Assembly (NCBI GenBank): GCA_016865865.1
Contig: VGOC01000001.1
Location: 64,513-103,514, forward strand
Length of the DNA stretch: 39,002 nucleotides
From: Chloroflexota bacterium
GTDB lineage: Bacteria; Chloroflexota; Anaerolineae; Anaerolineales; UBA11858
Direction: 5' to 3'
The translations under genes and the position numbers were made by a program. How positions within the stretch are numbered: position 1 is the first letter of the stretch; each line of letters opens with the position of its first letter. Below the pieces are notes generated by a model. The model saw only the letters and a program-made list of their open reading frames with translations. It ran no database searches and was not told the DNA's origin. Shown here one piece after another: positions 82 through 30,853 of this stretch.

Positions 82-173
82 GTATCTTCTCAATAACTTG
101 GGGGAAGATGGGGGGTGTGCGGGCGGCGAAGCCGCCCGCACACCCCCCGCCCCCCTTATTATTGAGATGATAC
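82..173 (+). mobile_element. Family A palindromic MITE-like element, copy A1
   Basis: A 92-bp near-palindrome begins GTATCTTCTCAATAA and ends with the inverse of GTATCATCTCAATAA. The centre is a strong GC hairpin (GGGTGTGCGGGCGGC with its inverse, loop GAA). It is flanked by perfect direct repeats TTTTATTG at 74-81 and 174-181, read as an 8-bp target duplication. Other copies are at 8611 and 27803. It has no coding capacity of its own, so it would need a transposase supplied in trans. It ends 11 bases past the stop of the minus-strand gene at 185 and could fold in that gene's 3' transcript. Confidence 0.85.
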
Positions 174-8223: not shown

Positions 8224-8337
8224 GTAACTGCTCAGTCATCGAACGGATTAGCCCGAAAAAAGGGTGTGCGTGGGGGGGCGCAGCCCCCCCACGCACACCC
8301 TTTTTTCGGGAATTTCTCCGTTTGGCTGAGTAGTTAC
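8224..8337 (+). mobile_element. Family B palindromic MITE-like element, copy B1
   Basis: A 114-bp element with inverted termini GTAACTGCTCAG and GTAACTACTCAG, inner arms CCCGAAAAAAGGGTGTGCG and a G/C-run loop. Perfect 8-bp direct repeats TTTTTAAC flank it (8216-8223 and 8338-8345). Copies B2 and B3 are at 23703 and 24545. The hairpin has A6 on one side and T6 on the other, so it could stop transcription in both directions. It lies between the tRNA-fMet terminator and the promoter of the antitoxin gene. It contains no gene. Confidence 0.9.
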
Positions 8338-8416: not shown

Positions 8417-8782
8417 ATGGAAAGAGAACTTGGTGTGACCGAAGCCAGAAAAGAGTTTAGTGATCTGGTCGAGAAAGTCCAATACTGGGATGATGCATAT
8501 ATGATCAGTCGTCATGGGAAACCTGCTGCAGCCGTTGTGCCAGTTCAGGTCTACGATCACTGGAGGCAGAAACGAGAGGAATTATTTCACCTGATCCGGG
8601 AGATGCAAGCTAACTTGGGGGAAGATGGGGGGTGTGCGGGCGGCTTCGCCGCCCGCACACCCCCCTCCCCCCTTATTATTGAGATGATACACCATTTGCT
8701 TGATCTTCAAGAATTTCAGGGGATTGTGATATTGACCCCTGTTGGATTGTTGACCATATTGGGAGTTGAAGCGAAGAGATAG
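8417..8782 (+). CDS. Phd/YefM-type antitoxin with C-terminus replaced by a palindromic element
   Basis: Residues 1-65 are a typical prevent-host-death antitoxin N-terminus: TEARKEFSDLVEKVQ, then ISRHGKPAAAVVPVQVYD, then the helix ELFHLIREMQ. This part dimerises and binds the operator. From residue about 66 the frame runs into the family A element at 8611-8690 and then through 30 residues of unrelated DNA. The normal toxin-binding tail and the toxin gene are absent; an aldehyde dehydrogenase follows directly. The whole open frame has 121 codons. Operator binding may be retained, while neutralisation of a toxin is unlikely. It is probably a remnant after a deletion next to the element. Confidence 0.75.
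   Translation: MERELGVTEARKEFSDLVEKVQYWDDAYMISRHGKPAAAVVPVQVYDHWRQKREELFHLIREMQANLGEDGGCAGGFAARTPPSPLIIEMIHHLLDLQEFQGIVILTPVGLLTILGVEAKR
8611..8690 (+). mobile_element. Family A palindromic element, copy A2, left end missing
   Basis: 80 bp match copies A1 and A3 from TAACTTGGGGG to the right end GAGATGATAC. The left terminal 12 bases are missing, and no direct repeat of the right flank (ACCATTTG) is found on the left. The loss of one end next to the truncated antitoxin suggests a deletion that started inside the element. Confidence 0.8.
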
Positions 8783-23702: not shown

Positions 23703-23814
23703 GTTACTGCTCAGCCATCGAATGGATTTACCCGAAAAAAGGGTGTGCGCAGGGGGCAACGCCCCCTTCGCACACCCTTTTTTCGGAAATTTCTCTGTTT
23801 GGCTGAGTAGTTAC
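23703..23814 (+). mobile_element. Family B palindromic MITE-like element, copy B2
   Basis: 112 bp, same orientation as B1, termini GTTACTGCTCAG and GTAACTACTCAG. Perfect 8-bp direct repeats TCCTCGTT lie at 23695-23702 and 23815-23822. It sits between the Flp pilin gene and the cation ATPase gene, both on the minus strand, in the ATPase leader. Its hairpin plus T tract could insulate the ATPase from pilin transcription. Confidence 0.9.
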
Positions 23815-24544: not shown

Positions 24545-24656
24545 GTAACTACTCAGCCAAACGGGGAAGTTCCCGAAAAAAGGGTGTGCGAAGGGGGCGC
24601 AGCCCCCTTCGCACACCCTTTTTTCGGGCTAATCCGTTCGATGGCTGAGCAGTTAC
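24545..24656 (-). mobile_element. Family B palindromic MITE-like element, copy B3
   Basis: 112 bp in the opposite orientation to B1 and B2, starting GTAACTACTCAG. Perfect 8-bp direct repeats CACTGTCC lie at 24537-24544 and 24657-24664. It ends 40 bases before the HTH gene at 24697, so it lies in that gene's promoter region. Confidence 0.9.
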
Positions 24657-26166: not shown

Positions 26167-26943
26167 ATGAGCCAGGCGCGCGCTTACCGGGGCGGCTACC
26201 TGATCGGCTTCATCGTTATCGGCGTGGTCGCGCTGCGGGCGGTCCTCGAACAGCAAATCCAGTCCGTCCTGCTCATCGGCCTCTACGGGCTGCTCTACAG
26301 CACGGAACCGTGGCTGGCGGGCCGCCGGCGCGGATACCGGCCGGTTTACTTTCCCATGCAGATCGCGCTGATCGTCGCCCTCTCCGCCCTGCCCCCCTTC
26401 TCGGACATCAACGCCCTGCTCTACGTCCCGCTCTGCATCCAGGCGCTGCACGCCTTCGAGCGCGGCGCGGCGCGAGCCTGGATCGCTGCCCTCGTCCTCC
26501 TGCTCGGCGCGACCCTGCTGCTCGGCATGGGCTGGTGGGAGGGGCTGGCGCTGATCTTCTCCTACCTGGCGGTCGGCGCGTTCCTGATCTCGTATGATTC
26601 CCTTTACTCGCGGACGCAGGCCGACCAGGCCGAAAGCCAGCGCCTGCTGGCGGACCTGCAATCTGCTCACGCAAAGTTGCAGGACTACGCCGCCCGGGCC
26701 GAGGAACTGGCCGCGGCGCGTGAACGCAACCGGCTGGCGCGTGAACTGCACGACTCGGTCAGCCAGGCGGTTTTCTCCATCACGCTTACATCGCAATCCG
26801 CCCGCCTACTCCTCGAGCGCGACCCGTCCCGCGTCCCCGAGCAGGTAGAACGCATGCAGGCCATGACCGGGGAGGCGCTGGCGCGGCTGCGGTCGTTGAT
26901 CGCGAGGTTGAGGCCTGACAGCTTTCCACGGAATCCCGATTGA
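26167..26943 (+). CDS. Truncated NarL-family sensor kinase without ATPase domain
   Basis: A 258-residue protein with membrane helices in residues 1-150, a coiled coil, and a HisKA_3 dimerisation domain with His195 (LARELHDSVSQAVFS). It ends at LRSLIARLRPDSFPRNPD, just where the HATPase domain should begin; about 130 residues are missing. It is paralogous to the preceding kinase over the coiled coil and H box. It could be phosphorylated by, or form heterodimers with, the complete kinase, or it may simply be a decaying gene. It starts one base after that kinase's stop codon, so co-expression is certain if transcribed. Confidence 0.85.
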   Translation: MSQARAYRGGYLIGFIVIGVVALRAVLEQQIQSVLLIGLYGLLYSTEPWLAGRRRGYRPVYFPMQIALIVALSALPPFSDINALLYVPLCIQALHAFERGAARAWIAALVLLLGATLLLGMGWWEGLALIFSYLAVGAFLISYDSLYSRTQADQAESQRLLADLQSAHAKLQDYAARAEELAAARERNRLARELHDSVSQAVFSITLTSQSARLLLERDPSRVPEQVERMQAMTGEALARLRSLIARLRPDSFPRNPD

Positions 26944-27048
26944 GCAGGCACTTTACATCTTGATGAAACCTGTCAGGTCTGCGAGGTGGTGACAGGTGAA
27001 TCAAGGGTGGAAATGGGGAATATTTATGTTTTGTAAGATATTACTGGA

Positions 27049-27077
27049 TTGACTTACTTTATAATCTTCGGTATACT
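27049..27077 (+). promoter_or_regulatory. Promoter of the AbrB/VapC-like toxin-antitoxin operon
   Basis: TTGACT (27049-27054), a 17-base spacer and TATACT (27072-27077). It lies just before the chosen antitoxin start and rules out a start at the ATG near 27049. Confidence 0.75.
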
Positions 27078-27105
27078 CCTGGCAAGATTTCGAAAGGAGC
27101 ATCCA

Positions 27106-27336
27106 ATGGAAACCGTTGCCACATCGAAAGGACAGGTGGTCATCCCTTCCAAGATTCGGCGCAAATTGGGAATCAAGGAAGGCACTTATATTCAGATTGA
27201 CGTAGACGAACTAAACAAGAGAATCATTCTCACCCCTGTTACGCGAGAGTATGTTCACAGCTTGCGCGGAAAATACAAAGGCAAAGGCTTGATGAAGGCG
27301 TTGATGGCAGAAAAGAAGCGCGAACAGGAGTACTAA
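27106..27336 (+). CDS. AbrB/MazE/VapB-type antitoxin
   Basis: A 76-residue DNA-binding antitoxin with the swapped-hairpin AbrB motif at residues 1-46: TSKGQVVIPSKIRRKLGIKE, then GTYIQIDVDELNKRIILTP. The C-terminal tail (RGKYKGKGLMKALMAEKK) should bind and block the PIN toxin encoded next. AAAGGAG lies 6 bases upstream of the ATG. The gene abuts the toxin gene with no gap. It is probably autoregulated through its AbrB domain, as in related modules. Confidence 0.9.
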   Translation: METVATSKGQVVIPSKIRRKLGIKEGTYIQIDVDELNKRIILTPVTREYVHSLRGKYKGKGLMKALMAEKKREQEY

Positions 27337-27747
27337 ATGACGTACAAAGCCAAAGCCCTTGTACTCGACACATGGGCGGTGATTGCCTATCTCGAGGATG
27401 AACCATCAGCTCAAAAGATTGCCGATCTGATTGCCAGCGCCAACGAGGAGGGAGTTCCCGTTTCCATGACAGTCGTGAACGTTGGCGAAGTTTGGTATAT
27501 CATTGCACGCGAAGTCTCCGAAGATGATGCGAATGACAGCGTCAAAGAACTTCGAGATTTGCGAATTCGATTCGAAAACGCGGATTGGGAGCTTACCCAA
27601 GAAGCGGCGCGGTTCAAATCACAAAATAATATGTCCTACGCCGATTGCTACGCGGCGGCGCTCGCCAGGGTCAAGGGGGCGGATTTGGTAACGGGGGACC
27701 AGGAATTCAAGCCGCTGGAGGGGCAAATTCTTATTCGATGGGTATAA
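27337..27747 (+). CDS. PIN-domain toxin (VapC-like ribonuclease)
   Basis: A 136-residue PIN protein with acidic metal-binding residues at the expected places: LDTWAVIAYLEDE (Asp11), NVGEVWY, SYADCYAAALA and LVTGDQEFK. PIN toxins cut tRNA or rRNA when released from the antitoxin. The gene begins directly after the antitoxin stop codon. The next gene, a res-like pseudogene, starts directly after its own stop (TAAATG). The pair looks intact. Confidence 0.92.
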   Translation: MTYKAKALVLDTWAVIAYLEDEPSAQKIADLIASANEEGVPVSMTVVNVGEVWYIIAREVSEDDANDSVKELRDLRIRFENADWELTQEAARFKSQNNMSYADCYAAALARVKGADLVTGDQEFKPLEGQILIRWV

Positions 27748-28258
27748 ATGAAAAATCCAATCATCAATTCCCCGTATTTTGAACCCACTTGTCACTTCGA
27801 AGGTATCTTCTCAATAACTTGGGGGAAGATGGGGGGTGTGCGGGCGGCTTCGCCGCCCGCACACCCCCCGCCCCCCTTATTATTGAGATGATACCTTCGA
27901 AGCAGATGAGCGAGGAATTTCGGATGAAATTATGGACTTTGTGGAGGGCGCATATGGAAGTGAACTCCAGCGACAGAATGAGCTCATCAACAAAATTCGG
28001 GTGAAGGTAAGAGAGTGGCGGGAGGGCAGCTATTCAGGAATTACCAGAACATCGCGCGATCTGCTATATTACTGGCGTGACGAAAACCACGAGAACAACC
28101 TATTCTTCTGCCAGATCGAAGCGTTGGAAACGTTGATTTTCATCACCGAAGTGGCGGAAAAAGCAGGCGAAATGTGGCTTCCGAATGAACTGCGAAAAGC
28201 CAACAACGAGGCCACCCCCGGGCTGTTCCGCCGCCTTTTTCATCACCATTCTGGCTAA
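27748..28258 (+). pseudogene. N-terminal fragment of a type III restriction/DEAD-helicase-like protein, interrupted by element A3
   Basis: The first 18 codons read MKNPIINSPYFEPTCHFE, then the frame is broken by the 92-bp element A3 at 27803-27894. When A3 and one copy of CTTCGAAG are left out, the frame continues without a break as ADERGISDEIMDFVEGAYG, on to KVREWREGSYSGITRTSRDL, LFFCQIEALETLIFITEVAE and NNEATPGLFR. This matches the start of Res-like helicase-nucleases (BPTD_3080 type) as I know them. The Walker A region that should follow PGLFR is gone; the frame ends in HHHSG, and repeat-like DNA follows. The gene therefore suffered an insertion and a 3' deletion. Confidence 0.85.
27803..27894 (+). 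mobile_element. Family A palindromic MITE-like element, copy A3
   Basis: 92 bp, nearly identical to A1, with loop TTC instead of GAA. Perfect 8-bp direct repeats CTTCGAAG lie at 27795-27802 and 27895-27902. It splits the res-like gene after codon 18. Confidence 0.92.
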
Positions 28259-28492
28259 GACCTGCCGAAGGCGGCGCACTGAGCCTATCGAAGGTGTCTC
28301 ATCCGCGCCGTGGTTGACCAGGGTCATCGCGTGGAGGTGGGTCACGATTGCCCTCACCCCCGTCCCCTTCACGCAACAGCCCTGCGGGACTTCCCAACGA
28401 ACGGGAGAGGGGAGTCCGTTGCGGGAGGAGGGTTGTTTTACCCCGTTTCGCAGGGTTCATTCGGCTATAATATCGCTATAGGAGTGTCCCTT
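28259..28492. other. Gene-free stretch before the methyltransferase
   Basis: These 234 bases replace the lost part of the res-like gene. They contain the dispersed short repeat ACTGAGCCTATCGAAG (from 28277, related to 2850) and a TATAAT at 28466-28471 that could be the -10 box of the methyltransferase, with no good -35 box. Confidence 0.45.
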
Positions 28493-29602
28493 ATGAACCT
28501 GCCCAATAATCAAATTCTCAAAGGCGATTGCGTCGAAACCCTGAATTCCCTGTCTGAGAAGTCCATTGACCTGATCTTTGCCGACCCGCCTTATAACCTG
28601 CAACTGCAAAACGAACTTCATCGTCCCAACATGACGAAAGTGGACGCGGTGGATGATCAATGGGATCAATTCGATTCGTTCGCCGCCTACGATGAGTTTA
28701 CCCGCCAGTGGTTGACCGCCTGCAAGCGCGTGTTGAAGTCCACTGGCTCGATTTGGGTGATCGGCTCGTATCACAACATCTTTCGCGTTGGAACAATTAT
28801 GCAGGATTTGGGCTTTTGGATGTTGAACGACGTAATTTGGGTCAAGACCAATCCCATGCCGAATTTTCGCGGTGTGCGATTTACCAATGCCCACGAAACT
28901 TTGATTTGGGCAAGTTCGGGAAAGGGTGCAAAATATACGTTCAACCATCAAGCCATGAAGGGTTTGAACGAGGAAAAACAAATGCGCTCCGATTGGTGGT
29001 TGTTGTCATTGGCGACGGGGTCAGAGCGTGTCAAGGGTGAAAATGGCGATAAGGCTCACTCCACGCAAAAGCCTGAGGCATTGCTGTATCGCGTGATCCT
29101 TGCTTCCAGCAACGCGGGCGATGTGGTACTTGATCCATTCTTTGGAAGCGGCACAACGGGCGTAGTTGCCAAAAGACTCCATCGAAATTGGATAGGGATT
29201 GAGCGCGAAGAAAAATACATTAGAGTTGCGCAGAAACGAATTGACGCCGTTCAGCCAGAGATGTTCGACCCGCAAACATTTGACGTGAAAAGCAAAAGCA
29301 AGTCCGCCCCCAAAGTGGAATTTTCCGCGCTGGTTGAAAACGGCTTTCTGCAAGCGGGTCAGAAGTTGTTTTTCTCGAAGGACAAAACGCGCTTTGCAAC
29401 CATCAAGCCCGATGCGCGGCTTCGCACTGCGGATGGATTCGAGGGAAGCATTCACAAGGCGGGCAGTCATTACATGAACGGTGCGCCCTGTAACGGTTGG
29501 GAACATTGGTACTTGCAAGAGAATAGTCATTTGGTTGTGTTGGATGAGATCCGTCAACGATACCGAATAGAAACGGGGCCTTTCGATGAGCAATCAGGTT
29601 AA
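28493..29602 (+). CDS. Adenine-N6 DNA methyltransferase, CcrM/M.HinfI type (probable GANTC specificity)
   Basis: A 369-residue beta-class methyltransferase: DPPY motif first (Asp31, FADPPYNLQ), then the target-recognition region, then the AdoMet-binding DPFFGSGTTGVVAK motif (from Asp214). Segments ILKGDCVETLNSL, LKSTGSIWVIGSYHNIFRVG and NAHETLIWASSGKG match the GANTC group (M.HinfI, CcrM) from memory. The C-terminal 90 residues (NGFLQAGQKLFF, NGWEHWYL) fit the RAMA-type domain of that group. GGAG lies 8 bases before the ATG at 28493. A short overlapping frame downstream may be the stump of the cognate nuclease. The gene appears intact and would act as an orphan. Confidence 0.93.
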   Translation: MNLPNNQILKGDCVETLNSLSEKSIDLIFADPPYNLQLQNELHRPNMTKVDAVDDQWDQFDSFAAYDEFTRQWLTACKRVLKSTGSIWVIGSYHNIFRVGTIMQDLGFWMLNDVIWVKTNPMPNFRGVRFTNAHETLIWASSGKGAKYTFNHQAMKGLNEEKQMRSDWWLLSLATGSERVKGENGDKAHSTQKPEALLYRVILASSNAGDVVLDPFFGSGTTGVVAKRLHRNWIGIEREEKYIRVAQKRIDAVQPEMFDPQTFDVKSKSKSAPKVEFSALVENGFLQAGQKLFFSKDKTRFATIKPDARLRTADGFEGSIHKAGSHYMNGAPCNGWEHWYLQENSHLVVLDEIRQRYRIETGPFDEQSG

Positions 29603-29771
29603 ACATATCATCCGCAAAACCGTCTTGCAAATAGACAGTACATCGCCTGAAAACATTCGCAGGATGATCGAGAAACACGAAGAGAAAGTCCATTTCGTGC
29701 CAATTCGGTATCGGATCATCGGCGGGATTCTGCAAGGACTCGACATCAAGTTCGGCAATTTCATCGAGTAA
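29586..29771 (+). pseudogene. Possible N-terminal stump of the cognate restriction enzyme
   Basis: A 61-residue frame that overlaps the methyltransferase end by 17 bases (SNQVKHIIRKTVLQIDSTSP, then YRIIGGILQGLDIKFGNFIE and stop). The sequence looks like a genuine protein start, and the position is where a type II nuclease gene would lie. I cannot assign it to a nuclease family with certainty. It is far too short for a complete enzyme, so it is probably a truncated gene. Confidence 0.5.
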
Positions 29772-29852
29772 TTGCTTCGGAACATTTCGTCAGTCTCAAC
29801 TTTCGCTTGCCTGAACTTGTGAAATTCCGCAGCAACGGTGTAGAATATTGAC

Positions 29853-29963
29853 ATGGACAGGAAAGTTCCGGCGCACATCCGCAGGTTGATGAAAGAGTTG
29901 AAGGAGGGGCTTGTCTGCATTTACGGGGACAGGCTGAAAGGCGTGTACCTGTATGGTTCCTAG
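29853..29963 (+). pseudogene. N-terminal fragment of an MNT-type nucleotidyltransferase antitoxin
   Basis: A 36-codon frame reads MDRKVPAHIRRLMKELKEGL, then GDRLKGVYLYGS and a stop. This is the usual start of minimal nucleotidyltransferases up to the catalytic GS motif, after which YARGEA-like residues should follow. Everything past GS is deleted. The HEPN fragment begins 13 bases later, as expected for an MNT/HEPN pair with an internal deletion. Confidence 0.7.
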
Positions 29964-29976
29964 ATGGTGTGCCAGC

Positions 29977-30165
29977 ATGAACGATTACACGCGCCGACTT
30001 CTCGCTAAAGCGATTGACGCGATCGAAAGCGCTGAGATCCTGCTCGACCATGGAAAAACCGATATGGCGGCGGGGCGCGCGTACTATGCTCTGTTTTATG
30101 TCGCCGAAGCCTTGTTGTATGAAAAGGGACTCCAATTCAGCAAGCACACGGGGGTGATGAGATAA
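29977..30165 (+). pseudogene. Truncated HEPN-domain toxin gene
   Basis: A 62-residue frame (MNDYTRRLLAKAIDAIESAE, then AAGRAYYALFYVAEALLYEK) matches the first half of UPF0332-type HEPN proteins, which are RNases or the toxin part of MNT/HEPN modules. It stops after FSKHTGVMR, before the second half of the helix bundle. Together with the MNT fragment it marks a dead toxin-antitoxin module. Confidence 0.75.
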
Positions 30166-30175
30166 GGTCAGTTAG

Positions 30176-30209
30176 AAACCCCGAAGTCGCGAGGCTTCGG
30201 GGTTTTTAT
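30176..30209 (+). terminator. Intrinsic terminator after the HEPN remnant
   Basis: The stem AAACCCCGAAG / CTTCGGGGTTT with an 8-base loop is followed by T-rich sequence. The 250 bases that follow, up to 30460, hold no gene; a TATAGT at 30423 may serve the receiver gene. Confidence 0.75.
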
Positions 30210-30460
30210 TTGGGAGATCGTTTCGCATCTTGGGGAAGGCTGACCTTTTGGTGGATGCAGGATGGAAATGGACAACGCACTTTGAGCATATACGCTTTTC
30301 GATCCCCTCAGGTACTACGACTTGCGACGTATCCCTACACCTCCGGTCGTAGTTCATAAATCCGTCTCTCGGCGCAGGGGGGATTCCGCCTCGCGGCAGA
30401 TGCGCTTTTCCTCGTCTGAGCGTATAGTGGGGATGTACATTTCGACCGAAGGAACTGCTC

Positions 30461-30853
30461 ATGAATACAACAGATGAAAGAAAGACTACCAGAGTATTGA
30501 TCGTGGACGATGTGGCCGAGGTGCGCCGCGACCTGCGCACCCTCCTGTCCCTCTCTGGGGACCTGGAGATCATCGGCGAGGCCGCGGACGGGCGGGAAGC
30601 CGTGCGCCTGGCCGCATCCATCCAGCCGGACGTGATCCTGATGGACCTGGAAATGCCCGTCCTGGACGGGAATGAGGCGACGCGGCAGGTCAAGGCCCTC
30701 GTCCCCGCCTGCCGGGTGGTCATGCTGACGGTCCACGATTACCCGGAGGCGCGCGCCGCCGCCCGGGAGTCCAGCGCGGACGCCTTCCTCGTCAAGGGCG
30801 CATCCGTGGAAGAGATCATTCGATCTCTGGTTTCACCCGGAAAGGGTGTTTAA
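30461..30853 (+). CDS. Receiver-only response regulator
   Basis: A 130-residue CheY-like receiver: acidic pair in VLIVDDVAEVRRD, phospho-acceptor Asp62 (VILMDLEMP), switch Thr in VVMLTVHD and Lys in FLVKGAS. It ends right after the domain. Such NarL-type receivers are normally fused to a LuxR HTH; here the HTH is missing, while an HTH-only protein lies at 24697. AAGGA lies 8 bases before the ATG. Its stop codon lies in the first bases of repeat D2, so the HTH part may have been cut off there. Confidence 0.9.
   Translation: MNTTDERKTTRVLIVDDVAEVRRDLRTLLSLSGDLEIIGEAADGREAVRLAASIQPDVILMDLEMPVLDGNEATRQVKALVPACRVVMLTVHDYPEARAAARESSADAFLVKGASVEEIIRSLVSPGKGV

What the first reader, a model, noticed from the sequence alone, without database searches (positions are those of the whole stretch)
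27748..28258. Element A3 split a restriction-type gene; virtual excision restores the frame
Removing A3 and one CTTCGAAG joins MKNPIINSPYFEPTCHFE directly to ADERGISDEIMDFVEGAYG with no frame change, giving the known start of Res-like helicase-nucleases. This is direct evidence that the palindrome is an insertion with exact ends and an 8-bp duplication, and that it inactivated a defence gene placed directly behind a toxin-antitoxin pair.
Basis: partly seen in the sequence, partly recalled or inferred. Interest (0 to 1): 0.7.

Follow-up and report, generated by a model that had tools for sequence, protein, structure and literature searches.

The report
Mini-transposon inside a dead restriction gene
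A 92-base mobile DNA element that carries no gene of its own landed cleanly inside the start of a restriction-enzyme gene, but only about an eighth of that gene is left, so the element sits in a relic and cannot be shown to have killed it.

Summary
Window 27803-27894 is a 92-bp palindromic element flanked by an exact 8-bp duplication (CTTCGAAG). Removing 100 bp restores one open frame, and the joined protein runs without a gap across the junction against intact BPTD_3080-type restriction proteins (72% identical over residues 1-32 in relative G085). The genome holds 22 full-length copies; 18 have their own, different 8-bp (once 13-bp) flanking repeats with at most one mismatch, so the duplication is real and not part of the inverted repeat. 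The ends (GTATC[A/T]TCTCAATA) also bound complete 1.73-1.80 kb insertion sequences with a single-ORF IS66-type transposase in related genomes, two with perfect 8-bp duplications. The element is a MITE of the IS66/ISBst12 kind. The causal claim is not shown: the host gene is a remnant of about 136 of 1037 codons, with an in-frame 75-nt deletion and truncation at Walker A; the rest of the gene and its partner methylase are absent from the 94%-complete genome. The downstream methylase is a genus-wide CcrM-like enzyme. A well-resolved but ordinary insertion; the side result, one set of ends enclosing about 34 unrelated hairpin cores across Chloroflexota, is more interesting.

The parts
27803..27894 (.). 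92-bp MITE core (element A3), near-palindromic hairpin
   Evidence: 100% identical to three other copies in the genome, 22 full-length copies in all; folds as one hairpin, z about -15
27803..27816 (+). Left terminal inverted repeat GTATCTTCTCAATA
   Evidence: 63 hits genome-wide versus 0 for the reversed control pattern; same ends on complete IS66-type insertion sequences
27881..27894 (-). Right terminal inverted repeat GTATCATCTCAATA
27831..27869 (.). Perfect 18-bp inverted repeat with 3-nt loop: the GC-rich core hairpin
   Evidence: (I3)
27795..27802 (+). Target-site duplication, left copy CTTCGAAG
   Evidence: other copies have different 8-bp flanks
27895..27902 (+). Target-site duplication, right copy CTTCGAAG
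27748..27802 (+). 5' piece of the BPTD_3080-type restriction gene remnant (codons 1-18 and the first base of codon 19)
   Evidence: (G000 and G085 matches)
27903..28258 (+). 3' piece of the remnant, open to TAA at 28256-28258; lacks a 75-nt stretch near 27932-27940 and loses frame at Walker A near 28240
   Evidence: NF046055 E=4.3e-30 on the joined protein; DNA alignment with G085
27106..27336 (+). Antitoxin of the AbrB/MazE type (VapB-like)
   Evidence: PF04014 E=5.7e-12
27337..27747 (+). PIN-domain toxin (VapC-like); its stop codon abuts the res start codon
   Evidence: PF01850 E=1e-16
28493..29602 (+). CcrM-like adenine methyltransferase with RAMA domain; a genus-wide gene, not the partner of the remnant
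   Evidence: NF050803 E=3.4e-164 but below its cut-off; orthologs 66-75% identical in other genus members in other surroundings
82..173 (.). Another full copy of the same MITE, duplication TTTTATTG on both sides
8611..8690 (.). Left-truncated copy of the same MITE, without duplication

Best explanation
Element A3 is a 92-bp non-autonomous MITE with ends of the IS66/ISBst12 kind. An IS66-type DDE transposase acting in trans recognised its 14-bp ends and inserted it at an 8-bp site, CTTCGAAG, which was duplicated when the staggered cut was filled in. The site lay at codon 18 of a gene for a BPTD_3080-type (type III-like, helicase-nuclease) restriction protein. That gene survives only as an N-terminal remnant that also suffered an in-frame 75-nt deletion and loss of everything from Walker A onward, together with its partner methylase. 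Shown: the ends, the duplication, the multicopy family, the junction homology, the further lesions, and the same ends on complete insertion sequences in other genomes. Inferred: the trans-acting transposase and the staggered-cut mechanism. Not determinable: whether the MITE or the deletions came first.
For: Twenty-two full-length copies in the genome; 13 have perfect and site-specific 8-bp flanking repeats, 1 a 13-bp repeat and 4 more differ by one base; chance for one perfect 8-mer is 1.5e-5. Excision of exactly 100 bp restores the frame. The joined protein is colinear across the junction with intact 1006-1037 aa proteins in G085, G019, G094 and G005. The same ends bound insertion sequences of 1730, 1753 and 1801 bp with an IS66-type transposase (PF03050 E=6.6e-14, above the gathering score), two of them with perfect 8-bp duplications. 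Remnant state: a search with the full G085 protein hits only this locus, residues 53-161; the partner methylase gives only generic motif hits; alignments.
Against: No transposase of this kind is found in the window's own assembly, so the driver is lost, unassembled, or too diverged for that search. The congener's complete insertion sequence (G003) has no matching duplication. The NCBIfam IS66 model scores 108 bits, below its cut-off of 180. No empty-site strain of this species was available.
Confidence: 0.92

Rival explanations
1. The MITE insertion itself killed an intact restriction gene, and the deletions followed as the dead gene decayed.
For: The insertion alone would stop translation after 47 codons. 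The remnant keeps an open frame and a strong coding signature against G085 (codon-position identity 0.75, 0.84, 0.48), so the gene died recently relative to its divergence.
Against: The MITE copy is identical to three others, so it looks recent, whereas about 87% of the gene and the partner methylase are already gone. Nothing orders the events.
Confidence: 0.3
2. CTTCGAAG is an outer part of the palindrome (108-bp element), or the whole is a REP-like or terminator hairpin and not a transposed element.
For: CTTCGAAG is its own reverse complement and extends the inverted repeat in this copy.
Against: Other copies end exactly at GTATC...GATAC and have other, mostly non-palindromic 8-bp direct repeats there; removing 108 bp breaks the frame; complete insertion sequences share the ends.
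Confidence: 0.02
3. The 3' truncation of the res remnant is an assembly chimera, and a full-length gene interrupted by the MITE exists in the cell.
For: The genome is a fragmented assembly of 168 contigs, and the region after 28259 contains repeat-like sequence (a 64-bp stretch recurs at 77% on contig C137).
Against: The missing roughly 875 residues and the partner methylase are found nowhere in the 94%-complete assembly, and the in-frame 75-nt deletion lies away from the break.
Confidence: 0.06
4. The hairpin has been kept because it acts as a transcription terminator or RNA stabiliser for the vapBC pair just upstream.
For: Very stable hairpin beginning within 60 bp of the vapC stop; most copies lie near gene ends or between genes.
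Against: No run of T follows the stem; location near gene ends is also what selection against gene disruption would leave; no expression data.
Confidence: 0.1

Closest known systems
IS66 family, ISBst12 group (ISDge4 of Deinococcus geothermalis, PMC12898284)
   Same: Single-ORF transposase of the IS66 kind; ends starting GTA or GTG with a CTxCTCA block (ISDge4: GTGACTACTCAGCA / GTAACTGCTCAGCA); 8-bp direct repeat on insertion.
   Different: The ends here read GTATCWTCTCAATA; the transposase is about 550 aa versus 449 aa and scores below the NCBIfam IS66 cut-off. A3 itself has no gene.
Bacterial MITEs (e.g. MITECca01 of Cardinium, PMC9769881)
   Same: Short, geneless, multicopy, with ends taken from an insertion sequence.
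   Different: Here one set of ends encloses many unrelated hairpin cores rather than a shortened parent insertion sequence.
BPTD_3080 family restriction endonuclease (NCBIfam NF046055)
   Same: The joined remnant matches positions 64-154 of 970, E=4.3e-30, and has the family's N-terminus.
   Different: 104 bits against a cut-off of 800: helicase and nuclease parts are missing.
Genus-wide orphan CcrM-like methyltransferase
   Same: 28493-29602 is 66-75% identical to copies in other genus members.
   Different: It is not the roughly 820-aa methylase found near the intact res gene in G085.

Membership tests
MITE (non-autonomous, IS-derived) | Short, no coding capacity, multicopy | tested here: met
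   92 bp; 22 full-length copies in the genome
MITE (non-autonomous, IS-derived) | Terminal inverted repeats and a target duplication of constant length | tested here: met
   14-bp ends; 8-bp duplication with at most 1 mismatch in 17 of 22 copies, 13-bp in one more
MITE (non-autonomous, IS-derived) | Ends shared with an autonomous element | tested here: met
   Complete insertion sequences in L283 (G003), L286 (G342), L287 (G292)
IS66 family / ISBst12 group | Transposase of the IS66 DDE family | tested here: met
   PF03050 above gathering score; NCBIfam NF033517 hit below its cut-off
IS66 family / ISBst12 group | 8-bp target duplication | tested here: met
   L286 gtttattc, L287 caattcat, both perfect
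IS66 family / ISBst12 group | Single large ORF (ISBst12 group) | tested here: met
   L283 carries one 569-codon open frame within 1801 bp
IS66 family / ISBst12 group | Transposase actually mobilises these ends | not testable with these tools
   needs a mobility assay
BPTD_3080 restriction endonuclease (functional) | Family N-terminus | tested here: met
BPTD_3080 restriction endonuclease (functional) | Walker A and helicase/nuclease domains present | tested here: not met
   Frame lost at Walker A; remainder absent from the genome
BPTD_3080 restriction endonuclease (functional) | Cognate methylase nearby | tested here: not met
   the neighbour is CcrM-like
VapBC toxin-antitoxin pair | AbrB/MazE-type antitoxin followed by PIN toxin | tested here: met

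The most novel reading that the evidence does not exclude
IS66/ISBst12-type ends of Chloroflexota act as interchangeable shells: the same roughly 22-base end module (GTATCWTCTCAATA-N4-GGGG) repeatedly captures resident palindromic repeats, giving a large superfamily of hairpin MITEs with unrelated cores but common ends and 8-bp duplications, all movable by one transposase type.
Probability: 0.35. Interest if true: 0.5.

Novelty: new member of a known kind. Interest (0 to 1): 0.33.

Why it matters
The interrupted gene provides a protein-level empty site that fixes the ends and the duplication of this MITE to the base. With the ends fixed, the parent type could be identified as IS66/ISBst12-like, a poorly characterised group, and the same ends could be followed across Chloroflexota. 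It also corrects the stronger reading: the genome did not demonstrably lose a defence system through this insertion.

Tried and rejected
A scan of GTDB contigs with the joined protein found no relative, probably because the sampled peptides are too particular. Rfam gave nothing in 26900-30500. DNA of the locus in other genus members matched the methylase, hairpin fragments and, in one (G005, 53 bp), a divergent full-length res gene; none has this res remnant or an empty site. Long insertion sequences with these ends were not found in the own genome nor as intact TSD-flanked pairs in the GTDB-scan loci; the latter often end inside them at contig edges. They were then found through the congener G003 and the order-wide transposase search. 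The idea that CTTCGAAG belongs to the inverted repeat was rejected. Literature searches for MITEs in Anaerolineae and for BPTD_3080 found nothing.

Full report
Observation. The finding's coordinates hold. The vapC stop (27745-27747) abuts an ATG at 27748; CTTCGAAG stands at 27795-27802 and 27895-27902 around a 92-bp near-palindrome. CTTCGAAG occurs four times in the window against 0.8 expected. With the element in place the frame stops after 47 codons; after removal of exactly 100 bp it runs 136 codons, and removal of 92 or 108 bp breaks it.

Is the duplication real? CTTCGAAG is its own reverse complement and could have been part of the inverted repeat. The own genome (3.25 Mb, 168 contigs, 94% complete) decides this. 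It holds 22 full-length and 2 truncated copies of the core, three of them identical to A3. All full-length copies end at GTATC...GATAC or a one-base variant. Thirteen are flanked by perfect 8-bp direct repeats that differ from site to site (AAAATAAC, GCAAAAAC, ATATTCAG, GTTATCAA and so on), one by a 13-bp repeat and four by repeats with one mismatch. Chance for one perfect 8-mer is 1.5e-5.

What is interrupted? The joined protein matches NCBIfam NF046055 (BPTD_3080 restriction endonuclease) at 4.3e-30. In relatives of the same order there are intact proteins of 1006-1037 aa. G085 aligns without a gap over residues 1-32 (72% identical, E = 2.2e-9), spanning the junction at residue 18/19, and again over 28-132 (64%). 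An alignment with G085, G019, G094 and G005 is colinear at the junction. This is an empty site at the protein level; no genome of the same species with an empty site was available.

Was a defence gene inactivated by it? This cannot be shown. Against G085 the remnant lacks 75 nt in frame (the conserved RRxSxYFxPIPxPKK stretch) and loses the frame at Walker A; everything after that is missing. The full G085 protein finds nothing else in the genome, and the methylase found near it finds only generic motif matches. The methylase downstream in the window is CcrM-like and occurs throughout the genus in other surroundings. Codon-position identities of 0.75, 0.84 and 0.48 against G085 suggest that the gene was long under selection and died recently; they do not order MITE and deletions.

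What moves the element? Its ends, GTATCWTCTCAATA, occur 63 times in the genome (up to one mismatch) against 0 for the reversed control pattern, and also bound cores of other lengths (80, 88, 94, 113 bp). In the congener G003 the ends lie 1801 bp apart around a 569-codon transposase frame that matches DDE_Tnp_IS66 (PF03050, 6.6e-14, above the gathering score) and NCBIfam IS66 at 6.7e-31 but below its cut-off. An order-wide search found further ones: L286 (1730 bp, duplication gtttattc) and L287 (1753 bp, duplication caattcat), both perfect. A published ISBst12-group element, ISDge4, has ends GTGACTACTCAGCA / GTAACTGCTCAGCA, a single ORF and an 8-bp repeat (PMC12898284). The MITE is thus of the IS66/ISBst12 kind by ends, duplication length and partner. 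No such transposase is found in the own assembly.

How unusual is A3 within its family? Most copies lie between genes or at gene ends; one other copy (L007) also splits a gene, probably a PIN-domain gene (E = 0.0015, below the gathering score). A3 is therefore a rare but not unique within-gene insertion.

A wider pattern. Among fetched loci, 100 distinct sites carry short elements with these ends and an 8-bp duplication (at most one mismatch). They comprise 94 different sequences in about 34 core families; 76% have inner parts that fold better than shuffles by more than 3 standard deviations (single-base shuffles, so the figure is approximate). One set of ends with many unrelated hairpin cores suggests exchange or capture of cores. 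This is inference.

Noticed in passing
window 8224-8337, 23703-23814, 24545-24656: A second hairpin MITE family (112-114 bp) with ends GTAACTRCTCAGCC and perfect 8-bp duplications TTTTTAAC, TCCTCGTT, CACTGTCC. The ends closely match those reported for ISDge4 (IS66/ISBst12).
   Followed up: partly
L102 (around 3060, minus strand) and L106 (around 2929): Copies of the second family sit inside elements with the first family's ends (nested insertions); in L102 an 8-bp duplication AATTTCTT is visible.
   Followed up: no
window 8417-8782: A Phd/RelB-like antitoxin reading frame runs into a truncated copy of the MITE (8611-8690), so the element supplies the frame's end.
   Followed up: no
L007 around 1501-1592: Another copy of the MITE splits what looks like a PIN-domain gene; joining the flanks restores a frame.
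   Followed up: partly
genomes G063 and G011: About 100 and 110 hits to the MITE end pattern in small genomes (1.8 and 2.7 Mb), with many G063 contigs ending inside such elements.
   Followed up: partly
window 28259-28480: Repeat-like sequence at the point where the res remnant breaks off; 28351-28414 recurs at 77% on contig C137.
   Followed up: no
L230, L240, L243: The Chloroflexota end pattern also appears in Desulfobacterota assemblies; these may be horizontal transfer, binning error or chance.
   Followed up: no
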